Below are positions 9,294 to 22,778 of a stretch of 22,778 bases of DNA, piece by piece (position 1 is the stretch's first letter; every line of letters starts with the position of its first letter). Under the pieces are notes generated by a model. The model worked only from the letters and a program-made list of their open reading frames with translations, was not told the origin of the DNA and ran no database searches. Made by a program: the position numbers and the translations under genes. The stretch comes from a virus, in the IMG/VR virus record IMGVR_UViG_3300005264_000104, positions 1 through 22,778 of that record; one strand, 5' to 3'.

Positions 9294-11738
9294 TTAGAAA
9301 TTTTCACAAAAATTTATCGCTTTTTTTATCGTCATATTGCTCCACCCGTATCTCTTTCCAAATTCTTCTATCATTACATGCTTGCCTTTGTACCACAGTT
9401 GACGCCAGAGCCATGCTGTCTTATGCCCTTTCGCTTTCCAGTATATATTAAGCTCGTTCAATGTCATATTCTTTACCCGCTTTGTTTTTACTGCTTTCTG
9501 ACCATCGTACATCAATGCTTGTAAGTCTATCTCTTTTGCTTTTTTGTCAGGATATTTGAACCCGCAAAACGGACAAATCTTGTACGATGCAAGTATGAGC
9601 CTGCGACACCCGCCCTTCTTAATTGGCTTACCTTGCAGCGTAAAACCGCACTCCTTTAAAGGCGGAAGTCCTTTGCCCTCCTTTTTTTCATGCCACAAGC
9701 CCCAATTTCTGTCCTCACTGTAATGCCCCAACCTTTGACAGTTTCCGCCAAAATCAAGTATATTGAAATGAGTTTTCGATTCGTGTATGCGGCTGCCCCT
9801 GCCAATCATTTGCAGCAACAAAGTAGTCGAAGTGGTTGCCCTGTTCAGTATTATTGTTTCAATACTTGGACAGTCATATCCTGTTGTGGCAATACCTGCA
9901 TTGACAAGAACTGTAAACTTACCATCCTTAAAATCCTTAAATATATTCTCCCTCTTTCCGCTGTAAAGCTTGAAATATTTTGCGTGTAATTCGTACACTC
10001 TCATTCTTTCTTCGTATCTCGCCATTTTACCCTTGTCTGATACATCCTCTGGCTTCTTTGGATGCGACACCTTGCTTGTGATAAACTTTGCATCTATGCC
10101 CTTATTTTGAAATTCTACGACTGTTCTTATCACATGCTCTATGTTTACACAAAAAACCAAAGTTTTAGAAAGAGGGCATATTTCCGAATAATTCTTAACC
10201 ACTCCGCTGTAAAGTTGTGGCGTATTGAATTTTTGAAACATCTGCCCTTCCTTATAATCCCCTTTCATATAATCATACTGAACGTCGCTCATATCCGGGC
10301 TGTCCAAACCATAATAATCATCATTTACTAAATAATTGTCAGCAATCAACTTTCTTACAGATACCGTTGGTATTATTGTTTGATAATCCAATGCCAATTG
10401 CCTCATGCTTCCGGAACGTTTAGGAGTAGCTGTAAAACCTATTACAAACTTATCAGCTAAATAACCGCCTTCAAATAAATAGTTAAATTCCTGTTTATGG
10501 CAATTGTGAACCAAAATATTATTTGCAAAATAATTATTATTATCTTGAACTTCTAAATTATAGACATAATTTTTTTTATTACTTTGTTTACATCTTTCAT
10601 TATTTCTTCGTTTGTAAATCTCAACACTTTGTACCCTTTCGATTGTAAAAGATTTGTTTTTCTTCGGTCTGCTTTTTTTGCTTTTAATGTACCGTGGCCT
10701 CTGCCATCTACTTCTATTGCTATTTTTAATTGAGGATTTCCTATATCTATTTTGTAATGATATGGAAGATATCCATTTCCTGTAACAATAACTAATTCCG
10801 GAAACCATTCGTCGCCAAGACATTCTATAAGCTTTTTTTGAGATTTTGTCATTCCTCTGCCGTTTCCTCCAAGAACAGGTGGTTTGTGACCCATTTTTTT
10901 TAATGTATCCGATACTTTTTTTCTTGTTTTTTTTGTGTGCATAGGATTGGTTTTTTTCATTCTTTTCGAACGTATTTTTGAAATACATTCTTTTGAACAA
11001 GCAACATTTTGCCCAGCTAAAAAACTTTGTTTTTTGTTCGACCATTTTTGAGCATCTATTTGCCCCTTTTTTATTACTGCGCCGCACTGTGTGCATTTTA
11101 TTTCTAATAATTTTGTCGCCATTTTTTATTTTTTCTGCATTAATATATCCTTTTCCGGCTACAAATATAGGATGTTTTTTTGTGCAAACAATAAAGTCGC
11201 AACAAAGATTTATTTTTATTAAGTCGTTTTGTATTTTATTTTTAAATGTATTTATTACTTTTTTTTGTTCAATCCCGTTTGTTACATGATTAAAGCTATT
11301 AACATAATCGCCTATTTTTATATCTTCAATATTTTTATTATCTATTTTTGTTCCTGCAATAAAGCATTCATCTATAATAACAATATTAATAGTATTTAAA
11401 AATTCTTGCCAGTAATCCAACTCTATTCTTCTGCGGAACGTCTGCGACATTGCTATATAACAGTCAAATGAGTTTGACACTATCTTTGTTCCTGCTTGTA
11501 TATAAAACGAATTTAAGCCCGCTTTCTTAATGCTTCCGCCTGCTTGAGTAAGCAGCTCAACTCTATCCGTCATTATTAATATCTTGTTTCCTTTTTCTGA
11601 CACTAATTTTGAAAGCACGGAAAATATAACCGTCTTTCCACTGCCAGTAGGAGCTTGTAAGATAAGTTTTTTACCTTTTTTAAAATAAGTCCGGATATTG
11701 TCTATCGCATGTTGCTGGTATGGTCGTAAATGAAACAT
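9294..11738 (-). CDS. SF2 DNA helicase precursor interrupted by an intein
   Basis: The frame encodes 814 residues. The helicase parts are residues 1-124 and 413-814 (526 residues after splicing). Walker A is APTGSGKT at 29-36; motif II is split as IIDE (121-124) and CHKQ (413-416); motif III-like GFTATPKR at about 434-441; motif V near NAGIATTGYDCP; motif VI QMIGRGSR at 643-650. A C-terminal zinc-ribbon-like set (C697, C711, C722 and C725, with CPFCG) and a basic end follow, as in phage and type I-restriction-like SF2 helicases. Because the intein sits in the DECH box, the enzyme should be inactive until spliced. The ATG overlaps the stop of the small gene upstream (TAATG). Confidence 0.88.
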   Translation of the reverse strand: MFHLRPYQQHAIDNIRTYFKKGKKLILQAPTGSGKTVIFSVLSKLVSEKGNKILIMTDRVELLTQAGGSIKKAGLNSFYIQAGTKIVSNSFDCYIAMSQTFRRRIELDYWQEFLNTINIVIIDECFIAGTKIDNKNIEDIKIGDYVNSFNHVTNGIEQKKVINTFKNKIQNDLIKINLCCDFIVCTKKHPIFVAGKGYINAEKIKNGDKIIRNKMHTVRRSNKKGANRCSKMVEQKTKFFSWAKCCLFKRMYFKNTFEKNEKNQSYAHKKNKKKSIGYIKKNGSQTTCSWRKRQRNDKISKKAYRMSWRRMVSGISYCYRKWISSISLQNRYRKSSIKNSNRSRWQRPRYIKSKKSRPKKNKSFTIERVQSVEIYKRRNNERCKQSNKKNYVYNLEVQDNNNYFANNILVHNCHKQEFNYLFEGGYLADKFVIGFTATPKRSGSMRQLALDYQTIIPTVSVRKLIADNYLVNDDYYGLDSPDMSDVQYDYMKGDYKEGQMFQKFNTPQLYSGVVKNYSEICPLSKTLVFCVNIEHVIRTVVEFQNKGIDAKFITSKVSHPKKPEDVSDKGKMARYEERMRVYELHAKYFKLYSGKRENIFKDFKDGKFTVLVNAGIATTGYDCPSIETIILNRATTSTTLLLQMIGRGSRIHESKTHFNILDFGGNCQRLGHYSEDRNWGLWHEKKEGKGLPPLKECGFTLQGKPIKKGGCRRLILASYKICPFCGFKYPDKKAKEIDLQALMYDGQKAVKTKRVKNMTLNELNIYWKAKGHKTAWLWRQLWYKGKHVMIEEFGKRYGWSNMTIKKAINFCENF
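10503..11366 (-). mobile_element. Intein in the helicase DECH box
   Basis: Residues 125-412 of the precursor, 288 residues. Splicing motifs are clear: first residue Cys125 with CFIAGTKI (block A), the block B segment with TKKHP at 187-190 region (T-x-x-H), block F YNLEVQDNNNYFANNILVHN (split here for length: YNLEVQDNNNYF, then ANNILVHN), penultimate His411, terminal Asn412, and Cys413 as the +1 residue. Exteins rejoin as IIDECHKQ, a proper DEAH-type motif II. The stretch between blocks B and F (about residues 206-395) is very basic and low in hydrophobic residues, because it is overlapped by an endonuclease gene in another frame (10553-11122). It is therefore not a LAGLIDADG-type intein in frame. 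Confidence 0.9.
10553..11122 (-). CDS. EDxHD (Vsr-like) homing endonuclease nested out of frame inside the intein
   Basis: 189 residues, reading frame shifted +1 from the intein. N-terminal zinc finger candidates are C10, C13, C42 and C46. A NUMOD3-like DNA-binding segment follows (KKTNPMHTKKTRKKVSDTL, about 57-74). The nuclease domain is at the C-terminus: YKIDIGNP with Asp126, then IAIEVDGRGHG (Glu137, Asp139, His143), Asp152 in KKADRRK, and GYKVLRFTNEEI. This is the E-D-x-H-D arrangement of the Vsr-like homing endonucleases first described with split inteins in phage metagenomes and represented by I-Bth0305I. The ATG at 11122 lies in block B codons and the TAG at 10553 lies just before block F, so the gene fits exactly between the splicing halves. 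It presumably cuts inteinless helicase alleles. Confidence 0.85.
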   Translation of the reverse strand: MATKLLEIKCTQCGAVIKKGQIDAQKWSNKKQSFLAGQNVACSKECISKIRSKRMKKTNPMHTKKTRKKVSDTLKKMGHKPPVLGGNGRGMTKSQKKLIECLGDEWFPELVIVTGNGYLPYHYKIDIGNPQLKIAIEVDGRGHGTLKAKKADRRKTNLLQSKGYKVLRFTNEEIMKDVNKVIKKIMSII

Positions 11739-19802: not shown

Positions 19803-20303
19803 TTATTTTTCTTTATATGTTTGTAAATATTGTTCGTATCCCTGTCTTCTTAACTTGCAGGCAGCACAATCATTGCACCCATATCCCCAAGGATGTCTCT
19901 TTGTTCTGTCTCCATTGTAACAAGTATGGCTCAATTTCAATACATCGGCTAAAATACTAAAATCTTTCGCCATTTTAAATATTTCTGCTTTATTTAGATA
20001 CATGAGCGGTGTATGTATGTATATACTGCAATCGCTGCCGCTGTTTAAAGCATCCTGTATCTGTGCAACAAAATCCGCTCTGCAATCAGGGTACCCGCTA
20101 AAATCAGTCTCGCATACTCCTGTCACAAGTGTATTTGTTTCTATTTTTTGGGCAAGAGCGTGGGCGATTGTAATAAACATCGCATTCCTGTTTGGCACAA
20201 AGCTCGCGGGTAAATCTTTCAACCTATCATGTTTCTTGTTTACATCTCCGTTAGACGTAAGTGCTGAATCCACTATGCTCGCAAAGAAGCTTATATGTGC
20301 TTT
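19803..20303 (-). pseudogene. queC: queC remnant: 7-cyano-7-deazaguanine synthase without the ATP-binding N-terminus
   Basis: The frame downstream of the TAA at 20304 reads QueC sequence: SALTSNG, SFVPNRNAMFITIAHALA, TGVCETDFSGYPDCRADFV and the C-terminal zinc site (SHTCYNGDRT, GYGCNDCAACKLRRQGYEQ; cysteines spaced C-x2-C-x2-C-type). About 165 codons remain compared with about 220 in QueC, and the N-terminal SGGxDS pyrophosphatase loop is missing. The first possible start is GTG 20273, so 156 residues at most. Without the loop, ATP-dependent conversion of CDG to preQ0 is not expected. It shares its frame with the queE remnant upstream, indicating one deletion that removed most of queE and the start of queC. 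Confidence 0.85.
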
Positions 20304-20396
20304 TTACAGATTTTTTTTGCCTGCACCCACTTCACCCGCCTTGCTTCCCTCGCCCTGGATGCTCTCAAATATCTCGTTTATCTTATACTTTTTCAT
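20304..20396 (-). pseudogene. queE: queE remnant: N-terminal 24 codons of 7-carboxy-7-deazaguanine synthase
   Basis: Starts at ATG 20396, overlapping the end of queD by 14 bases, with MKKYKINEIFESIQGEGSK, the standard N-terminus of QueE, then AGEVG, after which the expected radical-SAM CxxxCxxC region is absent. Six more codons (AGKKNL) lead to TAA at 20304. The poly-A stretch at the junction (T8 at 20311-20318 on the + strand) marks the deletion point. Without the cluster-binding cysteines it cannot be active. Confidence 0.85.
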
Positions 20397-20754
20397 TTGT
20401 AAAATTTTTATAAAAAAACATTTCATCTTCATATATTGCGATGTTCCCCTCGCTTTCCTGTACCTCAACCTTGTAACAAGTATCAAACTGTTCAAATACC
20501 CACTTTGCAATATTTTCAGCAGTCGGGTTCATTTTAGGAAATATCCTGTTCAAATCAGTGTGGTCCAAGACATCATGTATTTTTTTCTTTATTTCCGTAA
20601 AATCCACCACCATACCGTTATGGTTTAATTTTACTGCCGCACAATGCACGGTAATTATCCAATTATGACCGTGTTTGGTTGTACACTTGCTCTCATAATC
20701 CAAGCTCAAGCTATGAGCTCCAGCTACCTCCATTCTCTTACTTACTTTCCACAT
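20383..20754 (-). CDS. queD: 6-carboxytetrahydropterin synthase QueD
   Basis: 123 residues from ATG 20754 (an in-frame TTG at 20772 is the alternative). Zinc ligands His14 (GAHSL), His28 and His30 (KHGHNW), the catalytic Cys24 (SKCTTKHGH), MVVDFTEIK, LDHTDLN, NPTAENIAKW and VQESEGNIAIY are all present, so the protein looks intact. It makes the pterin precursor of 7-deazaguanine from dihydroneopterin triphosphate. Downstream queE and queC are broken, so the pathway cannot finish unless host genes supply the missing steps. A FolE gene is not in the window. Confidence 0.9.
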   Translation of the reverse strand: MWKVSKRMEVAGAHSLSLDYESKCTTKHGHNWIITVHCAAVKLNHNGMVVDFTEIKKKIHDVLDHTDLNRIFPKMNPTAENIAKWVFEQFDTCYKVEVQESEGNIAIYEDEMFFYKNFTNEKV

Positions 20755-21073
20755 AATTTTTTTCTTTTTCAAATTGTTTATAAATATTTTTTAATTTCCT
20801 TTCTGCATTATCCATGTTGAAGGCATACAGATACCAGCAATCTTTCTTATGTTCCACTTCAAATTTTCGCTTGGGCTTTCCTGTCTTAAAATCCACGCTT
20901 ACTGTCTTTTTTATTTCCGCGACACTTAACTCTCCAGTGACAGTATTAAACTCAAACAAAGTAAGCCCGGGTCTATACTTCATGCTGCCTATCATTTTAT
21001 ACTCCTGCTTTACTTCCGCTTTTTTTACTATCTGCTTTTCAGGCTTGTTGTTTTTTGGGATTATGCTTTTCAT
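20738..21073 (-). CDS. Hypothetical phage protein
   Basis: 111 residues from ATG 21073, which overlaps the upstream stop as ATGA. It starts with a basic, flexible segment (MKSIIPKNNKPEKQ) and then a beta-rich domain (MKYRPGLTLFEFNTVTGEL, VDFKTGKPKRKFEVEHKK) with an aromatic CWYLYAFNM strand and a basic C-terminal helix. No named family is recognised, though the pattern PGxTLFxFN is, from memory, seen in other Bacteroidetes phage proteins. Its end overlaps queD by 17 bases. Confidence 0.65.
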   Translation of the reverse strand: MKSIIPKNNKPEKQIVKKAEVKQEYKMIGSMKYRPGLTLFEFNTVTGELSVAEIKKTVSVDFKTGKPKRKFEVEHKKDCWYLYAFNMDNAERKLKNIYKQFEKEKNYVESK

Positions 21074-22333: not shown

Positions 22334-22778
22334 TTATAATTTTTCAGATTTTAATATTCCATCCTCAAACCAATATGCTGTGTCTGCTTGTATTTTTACT
22401 CCTTTTATTATATGTTTTCCAACTTTTGCTCTATGAATGTCTTTTATGTACATTTTGCTTTCATTATTTCTTCTCCAGTCTACAATAATTATCCATCCTT
22501 TTTTTGCTGAAGCTTTTGAATTAATTCCTAATGATGACGCAATGCTTTCATTCCCGGATGTATTGCTGTGGCTGTAATACCCGGATGTATTGCTGTGGCT
22601 GTAATTCCCGGATGTATTGCTGTGGCTGTAATTCCCGGATGTATTGCTGTGGCTGTAATTCCCGGATGTATTGCTGTGGCTTTTATTCCCGGATGTATTG
22701 CTGTGGCTGTAATTCCCGGATGTATTGCTGTGGCTGTAATTCCCGGATGTATTGCTGTGGCTTTTATTCCCGGATGTA
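22334..22778 (-). CDS. Repeat protein (C-terminal part), nine-residue repeats then a conserved end domain
   Basis: The frame is open from the right edge to TAA 22336-22334, about 147 codons; the start lies beyond the window. From the N side it shows eight copies of a nonapeptide of type S-H-S-N-T-S-G-N-(Y/K), then a degenerate copy GNESIASS, then GINSKASAKKGWIIIVDW and an end domain with IKDIHRAKVG, IQADTAYWF. From memory this resembles phage and bacterial proteins with repeating GxxSxAxxx-type blocks followed by a globular domain with KADTxY-like ending; in those the repeats are thought to form a beta-solenoid. The function is unknown. Repeat-rich DNA makes the length liable to change in frame. 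Confidence 0.75.
   Translation of the reverse strand, partial: TSGNKSHSNTSGNYSHSNTSGNYSHSNTSGNKSHSNTSGNYSHSNTSGNYSHSNTSGNYSHSNTSGYYSHSNTSGNESIASSLGINSKASAKKGWIIIVDWRRNNESKMYIKDIHRAKVGKHIIKGVKIQADTAYWFEDGILKSEKL
22561..22776 (-). repeat. 27-bp tandem repeats, eight copies, coding
   Basis: Unit starts at 22561, 22588, 22615, 22642, 22669, 22696, 22723 and 22750; copies differ only in the codons giving GNY, GNK or GYY. The array continues past the edge (22777 onward) and fades into a degenerate copy around 22540-22560. As 27 is divisible by 3, changes in copy number keep the reading frame. Confidence 0.9.

What the first reader, a model, noticed from the sequence alone, without database searches (positions are those of the whole stretch)
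10553..11122. Endonuclease gene overprinted out of frame within the intein, while the intein frame remains open
Seen: a full-length EDxHD/Vsr-like endonuclease with zinc finger, NUMOD3-like segment and catalytic residues is encoded in the +1 frame from block B to block F, and about 186 intein codons across it have no stop, although the DNA is AT-rich. Known: such endonucleases were described as freestanding genes between split intein halves. Here the same nuclease sits in a contiguous intein whose linker is the nuclease gene read in another frame. Inference: selection keeps both frames open, giving a dual-coding selfish element that splices in cis, or one in transition between contiguous and split forms.
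Basis: partly seen in the sequence, partly recalled or inferred. Interest (0 to 1): 0.9.

Follow-up and report, generated by a model that had tools for sequence, protein, structure and literature searches.

The report
Intein hiding an overprinted homing nuclease
A phage helicase gene carries a self-splicing insert whose middle part, read in a second frame, encodes the DNA-cutting enzyme thought to spread the insert, and selection has kept both readings open in more than a hundred related viruses.

Summary
A 189-aa EDxHD nuclease ORF (10553-11122, minus) lies +1 inside a contiguous 288-aa intein (10503-11366) in motif II of an SF2 helicase. The arrangement is not private to this window. Nuclease-seeded scans gave 127 contiguous loci (112 distinct nuclease sequences) in phages, including Vibrio, Pseudomonas and Corynebacterium isolates. 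In all of them the nuclease is +1 and the intein frame has no stop. An intein-seeded scan found it in 70 of 75 complete inteins. Openness is selected: nuclease codons ending in T are 60% in neutral contexts and 0 of 1262 where they would create an intein stop. Split and freestanding relatives do not show this avoidance (114/148, 102/119). Three zones emerge: a nuclease start inside the intein's N-half, often with a Shine-Dalgarno built from intein codons; a long stretch where the intein frame is only kept stop-free; and a ~29-codon tail where both protein sequences are conserved. A clade of seven split inteins groups with the window's lineage, suggesting contiguous dual-coding inteins became split. 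Splicing, cleavage and homing are inferred, not shown. Closest published precedent read here: the ShiLan out-of-frame HNH insert, which lacks an intein. One relevant preprint could not be read.

The parts
9294..11738 (-). host gene: SF2 (ResIII/Helicase_C) helicase with in-frame intein, one 814-codon ORF
11367..11738 (-). N-extein, ending ...VIIDE (motif II)
10503..11366 (-). intein, 288 aa, Cys1 ... His-Asn, followed by Cys+1
   Evidence: Pfam Intein_splicing 5.7e-12; TIGR01443; Hint fold in model
11097..11366 (-). N-terminal splicing half (blocks A, B), pLDDT above 90
10553..11122 (-). EDxHD nuclease gene, 189 aa plus stop, +1 frame relative to the intein
11120..11122 (-). nuclease ATG start inside the intein, A-rich leader without Shine-Dalgarno, like other genes of this window
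10646..11096 (-). free zone: intein frame only stop-free, predicted disordered linker
10553..10645 (-). two-way constrained tail: nuclease residues 160-189 and intein C-half (RVQSVEI ... VY) share the same DNA
10503..10649 (-). C-terminal splicing half (blocks F, G), ends VHN
9294..10502 (-). C-extein, begins CHKQEFN, helicase C-terminal part

Best explanation
It is a contiguous, cis-splicing intein with a homing endonuclease encoded out of frame inside it. Ribosomes translate the helicase ORF straight through; the intein's two Hint halves fold around a disordered linker and splice out (inferred). Other ribosomes start inside the intein at the nuclease ATG and make a separate EDxHD nuclease (start signals shown statistically, expression inferred). 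The nuclease cuts intein-free motif II (Walker B) alleles and recombination copies the element in (inferred from transfer signatures). Selection keeps the nuclease sequence, and in the intein frame removes stops over most of the overlap and keeps the residues of the C-terminal splicing half in the last ~29 codons (shown).
For: 127 contiguous loci, all +1, all stop-free; intein-seeded scan 70/75. T-ending codon avoidance 0/1262 against 3187/5312 elsewhere, lost in split (114/148) and freestanding (102/119) relatives; the Tyr of the YK pair is TAC in 106/106 dual loci and TAT in 5/7 split and 4/5 free. In nine close pairs, nuclease-synonymous/intein-nonsynonymous changes 175 seen, 57.6 expected; nuclease-nonsynonymous 102 against about 202; intein-stop-creating 0 against about 15. 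Intein residues conserved beyond the nuclease's shadow only at nuclease residues 160-188 (plus one isolated column, 142). Shine-Dalgarno at -5 kcal/mol or better before the nuclease ATG in 49% of loci against 8% of control positions, P=1e-10. Nuclease model pLDDT 93, top PDB match I-Bth0305I; intein model: Hint halves above 90, linker 42-58. Transfer signature: element 0.2-6% different while exteins differ 6-26% (L003/L006, L033/L041, L128/L129; nuclease part and C-half only in L124/L128). Intein-free allele in Cellulophaga phage phiSM.
Against: No experiment: splicing, nuclease expression and cleavage are untested. The window itself has no Shine-Dalgarno before the nuclease; its other genes mostly lack one too. 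The transfer signature could partly reflect double constraint, though third-position differences in the intein N-half also drop in several pairs. The searches were seeded from dual-coding sequences, so frequencies outside this family are unknown.
Confidence: 0.88

Rival explanations
1. The second open frame is a chance product of an A-rich, Lys-rich nuclease gene; only the nuclease, or only the intein, is functional.
For: 14/277 ordinary genes have a second same-strand open stretch of 186 codons or more.
Against: 0/2000 shuffles open for the window; 0/1262 stop-making T codons in dual loci but 114/148 and 102/119 in split and free relatives; both frames conserved in the tail; nuclease catalytic residues invariant.
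Confidence: 0.01
2. It is a split (fractured) intein in practice: N- and C-halves are made separately and the open frame between them is residual.
For: A sister clade of seven loci is split by stops, with the N-half stopping just after the nuclease start and the C-half ORF beginning inside the nuclease 3' end, still +1 (tree).
Against: Stop avoidance is absolute in contiguous loci and gone in the split clade, so the through-frame is in use.
Confidence: 0.04
3. The nuclease is made by +1 ribosomal frameshifting from the intein N-half, or by leaderless or coupled translation, rather than by internal initiation.
For: The nuclease open frame often extends upstream of its ATG; leaderless initiation was proposed for the ShiLan element (PMC11855218).
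Against: Shine-Dalgarno enrichment and in-frame ATG just before the conserved Cys; the open stretch upstream of the ATG varies in length between loci.
Confidence: 0.08
4. The nuclease frame is a decaying relic of past homing and only the intein matters now.
For: One locus (L112) has a stop in the nuclease while the intein frame is open.
Against: Nuclease-nonsynonymous changes are half of expectation and synonymous ones three-fold in excess in close pairs; in the tree set only L112 had a stop inside the nuclease match.
Confidence: 0.04

Closest known systems
[quoted passage not shown]
   Same: endonuclease read out of frame within an in-frame, stop-free insertion in a phage gene; signs of homing
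   Different: no intein splicing domain (authors tested); HNH not EDxHD; few loci; no codon-level test of selection on both frames in the parts read; no detectable ribosome-binding site
Fractured genes: split inteins with freestanding Vsr-like (EDxHD) endonuclease (Dassa et al. 2009; cited in PMC10448857 and PMC12350094, text not readable here)
   Same: same nuclease kind next to intein halves in phage replication genes (from general knowledge of that paper)
   Different: there the halves are separate genes around a freestanding nuclease; here one contiguous ORF is overprinted by the nuclease. The split clade found here probably links the two
I-Bth0305I, EDxHD homing endonuclease (PDB 3r3p)
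   Same: best fold match, similar catalytic residues
   Different: deposited as a mobile intron protein, not an intein one
Canonical bifunctional intein (LAGLIDADG or HNH domain in frame, e.g. PI-SceI)
   Same: intein plus homing endonuclease as one mobile unit
   Different: endonuclease is fused in frame there; here it is a separate protein from another frame
Gosselin, Arsenault, Gogarten bioRxiv 2025.01.02.630785 on actinobacteriophage inteins with non-canonical architecture; Gorbalenya 1998 Non-canonical inteins
   Same: cited by PMC11855218 for overlapping frames in actinobacteriophages; may include out-of-frame nucleases in inteins
   Different: neither could be read, so overlap with the present finding is unknown

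Membership tests
Intein (Hint protein-splicing element) | nucleophile Cys1, block B TxxH, C-terminal His-Asn, Cys/Ser/Thr at +1, in-frame insertion in a conserved site | tested here: met
   invariant C1, T6, H65, H287, N288; +1 Cys
Intein (Hint protein-splicing element) | Hint fold | tested here: met
Intein (Hint protein-splicing element) | protein splicing activity | not testable with these tools
   needs expression
EDxHD (Vsr-like) homing endonuclease | conserved acidic and His catalytic residues | tested here: met
   D126, E137, D139, H143, D152 invariant or nearly so; active-site geometry not measured
EDxHD (Vsr-like) homing endonuclease | catalytic-domain fold like I-Bth0305I | tested here: met
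   Foldseek top hit 3r3p, probability 1.00, TM 0.69 by target, E 1.6e-3; profile E 0.0012
EDxHD (Vsr-like) homing endonuclease | N-terminal zinc finger and NUMOD DNA-binding modules | tested here: inconclusive
   Cys pairs and NPM motif conserved, no Pfam NUMOD hit at the threshold used
EDxHD (Vsr-like) homing endonuclease | site-specific cleavage of the empty allele | not testable with these tools
   needs enzyme assay
Split intein / fractured gene | two intein halves in separate ORFs | tested here: not met
   one ORF without stop; met only in the sister clade
Canonical bifunctional intein | endonuclease domain in frame with the intein | tested here: not met
   +1 in every locus
ShiLan-type out-of-frame HNH insertion | HNH nuclease and no splicing domain | tested here: not met
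   EDxHD nuclease, Hint domain present

The most novel reading that the evidence does not exclude
A large, ancient class of dual-coding inteins in which the homing endonuclease is a separate protein encoded +1 within a contiguous cis-splicing intein, and from which at least one lineage of split inteins arose when the through-frame was lost.
Probability: 0.65. Interest if true: 0.9.

Novelty: new variant of a known kind. Interest (0 to 1): 0.84.

Why it matters
It is a third way to join a homing endonuclease to a protein-splicing element, beside in-frame fusion and split halves. It is a long overprint with a built-in control (split and freestanding relatives), so selection on each frame can be separated codon by codon. 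It suggests a concrete route to natural split inteins: lose the through-frame, keep the two halves. It also means annotation hides these nucleases: every isolate record examined shows one CDS called helicase, hypothetical protein or the like, with no nuclease gene.

Tried and rejected
Chance openness was tested by shuffles, codon context and an empirical null; the empirical null showed that length alone would be weak evidence. A single-protein viral scan with P0001 found nothing; alignment queries worked. Plasmid matches are mostly DUF559 proteins covering only the catalytic part. Nuclease in frame with the intein: never seen. A frameshift artefact or assembly error was rejected because independent isolates share the arrangement. 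Published accounts of out-of-frame nucleases inside inteins were sought in the held library and none was found beyond the ShiLan papers; the key preprint and two older papers are not held. The sister relation of the split clade to the window lineage has only moderate support (91/71), so direction is stated as probable.

Full report
What is there. On the minus strand, one 814-codon ORF (9294-11738) encodes an SF2 helicase (ResIII, Helicase_C) interrupted in motif II, DE^C...HN^CHK, by a 288-aa intein (10503-11366). A second ORF (10553-11122, 189 aa) lies entirely inside the intein in the +1 frame and encodes a DUF559/EDxHD nuclease (PDB relatives 3hrl and I-Bth0305I 3r3p). AlphaFold2 gives the nuclease pLDDT 93 with I-Bth0305I as best PDB fold. 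In the intein frame, residues 1-90 and most of 240-288 form a confident Hint domain, and residues 91-240 are mostly below 60; Foldseek aligns it to bacterial intein-like and intein structures.

Not a private oddity. Phage isolates of Vibrio (CP-T1, 104E43.1, K391, 159E43, 1.088.O), Pseudomonas (MR14) and Corynebacterium (phi673) have the same arrangement, each annotated as one CDS. Alignment-based scans of viral and prokaryote contigs brought the total to 127 contiguous loci with both intein halves (112 distinct nuclease DNA sequences), every one with the nuclease +1 and no stop in the intein frame across it. A scan seeded on the intein N-half alone, with no nuclease in the query, found the +1 nuclease in 70 of 75 complete inteins; the other five are two inteins of 130-135 aa, two of 164 aa and one of 397 aa. 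Exteins checked are SF2 or SNF2 helicases, a clamp-loader-like ATPase (L072) and a terminase large subunit (L120), with the insertion at or near the Walker B motif.

Selection on both frames. An intein stop arises when a nuclease codon ending in T precedes AA, AG or GA. In dual loci this occurs 0 times in 1262 chances; elsewhere T is used in 3187/5312. In split loci it occurs 114/148 and in freestanding nucleases 102/119. For the window alone: 0/11 against 43/51, and 0 of 2000 own-codon shuffles is open (mean 13.2 stops). In nine close pairs, changes silent in the nuclease but not in the intein are three-fold in excess (175 against 57.6), nuclease-changing ones are at about half (102 against about 202), and none creates an intein stop (about 15 expected). 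So the nuclease sequence is conserved, and the intein frame is kept free of stops. A column-by-column comparison with stop-free synonymous simulations shows intein residues conserved beyond the nuclease's shadow only at nuclease residues 160-188 (apart from one isolated column, 142), where the intein's RVxSVEI...DGxFG..C.DGxVYN segment is read from the same DNA as the nuclease's GWKVLRF end. Before that the intein reading is mostly a by-product; for example an invariant Gln in the intein alignment is simply the TAC-AAR of the nuclease's Tyr-Lys.

Expression of the nuclease. An in-frame ATG lies shortly before the first zinc-finger Cys in most loci. In 49% a Shine-Dalgarno of -5 kcal/mol or better precedes it, against 8% of control positions (P=1e-10); in several loci (L001, L004, L009, L021, L059) it is built from the intein's Asp-Glu-Val codons, GAYGAGGTN. 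The window has an A-rich leader instead, like most of its own genes. This favours internal initiation over frameshifting.

Mobility. In several close pairs the element is far more alike than its host gene on both sides: L003/L006 5-6% against 20-22% nucleotide difference, L128/L129 0-0.4% against 6.5-11%, L033/L041 about 2-4% against 13-26%; in L124/L128 only the nuclease and C-half are alike (3% against 20-23%). Intein-free helicases such as that of Cellulophaga phage phiSM align straight across the site, with DEAH in place of DECH. One locus, L112, has a stop in the nuclease with the intein frame still open. These fit a homing cycle but do not prove cleavage.

Split relatives. Seven non-redundant loci (9 in all) are split: inserted a few residues downstream (DExHx^CGxxPKP), the N-half stops just after the nuclease start, and the C-half ORF begins inside the nuclease's 3' end, still +1. 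They form one clade (100/99) and group with the window and its two nearest relatives L095 and L096 (91/71); the intein N-half scores point the same way. The simplest reading is that a contiguous dual-coding intein lost its through-frame and became split; support for the exact sister group is moderate and the root is not inferred.

Prior work. The nearest description found is the ShiLan domain (PMC11855218), an out-of-frame HNH nuclease in a stop-free insertion that its authors could not identify as intein or intron. Its references to a 2025 preprint on actinophage inteins with non-canonical architecture and to Gorbalenya 1998 may cover out-of-frame nucleases inside inteins; neither was available. 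[quoted passage not shown] I therefore rate it a new variant of a known kind, with the scale, the codon-level evidence and the link to split inteins as the new content.

Shown: both ORFs, their conservation, selection against stops, two-sided constraint in the tail, start-signal enrichment, predicted folds, transfer-like divergence pattern, split clade. Inferred: splicing in cis, synthesis of the separate nuclease, cleavage of empty alleles, direction from contiguous to split.

Noticed in passing
L112 (2638-5535): The same helicase carries a second intein-like insert at Walker A (ATGC^FVGDT...HN^SGKT); its motif II element has a stop in the nuclease while the intein frame is open.
   Followed up: partly
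window 19803-20273(-) and 20383-20772(-): ORFs that by eye resemble QueC and QueD (preQ0 pathway), possibly for phage DNA modification; no library search was run on them.
   Followed up: no
window 22334-22777(-): Tandemly repeated ORF (SNTSGNYSH units) at the window edge, open in several frames because of the repeat.
   Followed up: no
window genes: Most genes of the window lack a Shine-Dalgarno and have A-rich leaders; helicase relatives are in Cellulophaga, Flavobacterium and Parabacteroides phages, pointing to a Bacteroidota phage.
   Followed up: partly
L015, L093, L130, L135: Nuclease relatives with no intein halves detected and many stops in the other frames: freestanding copies scattered over the tree.
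   Followed up: partly
L171, L195: Inteins of 135 and 130 aa of the same family without nuclease, candidates for compact splicing domains.
   Followed up: no
L001-L007, L225: Isolate records annotate a single helicase, hypothetical or coil-containing protein; the nuclease gene is missing from annotation.
   Followed up: yes
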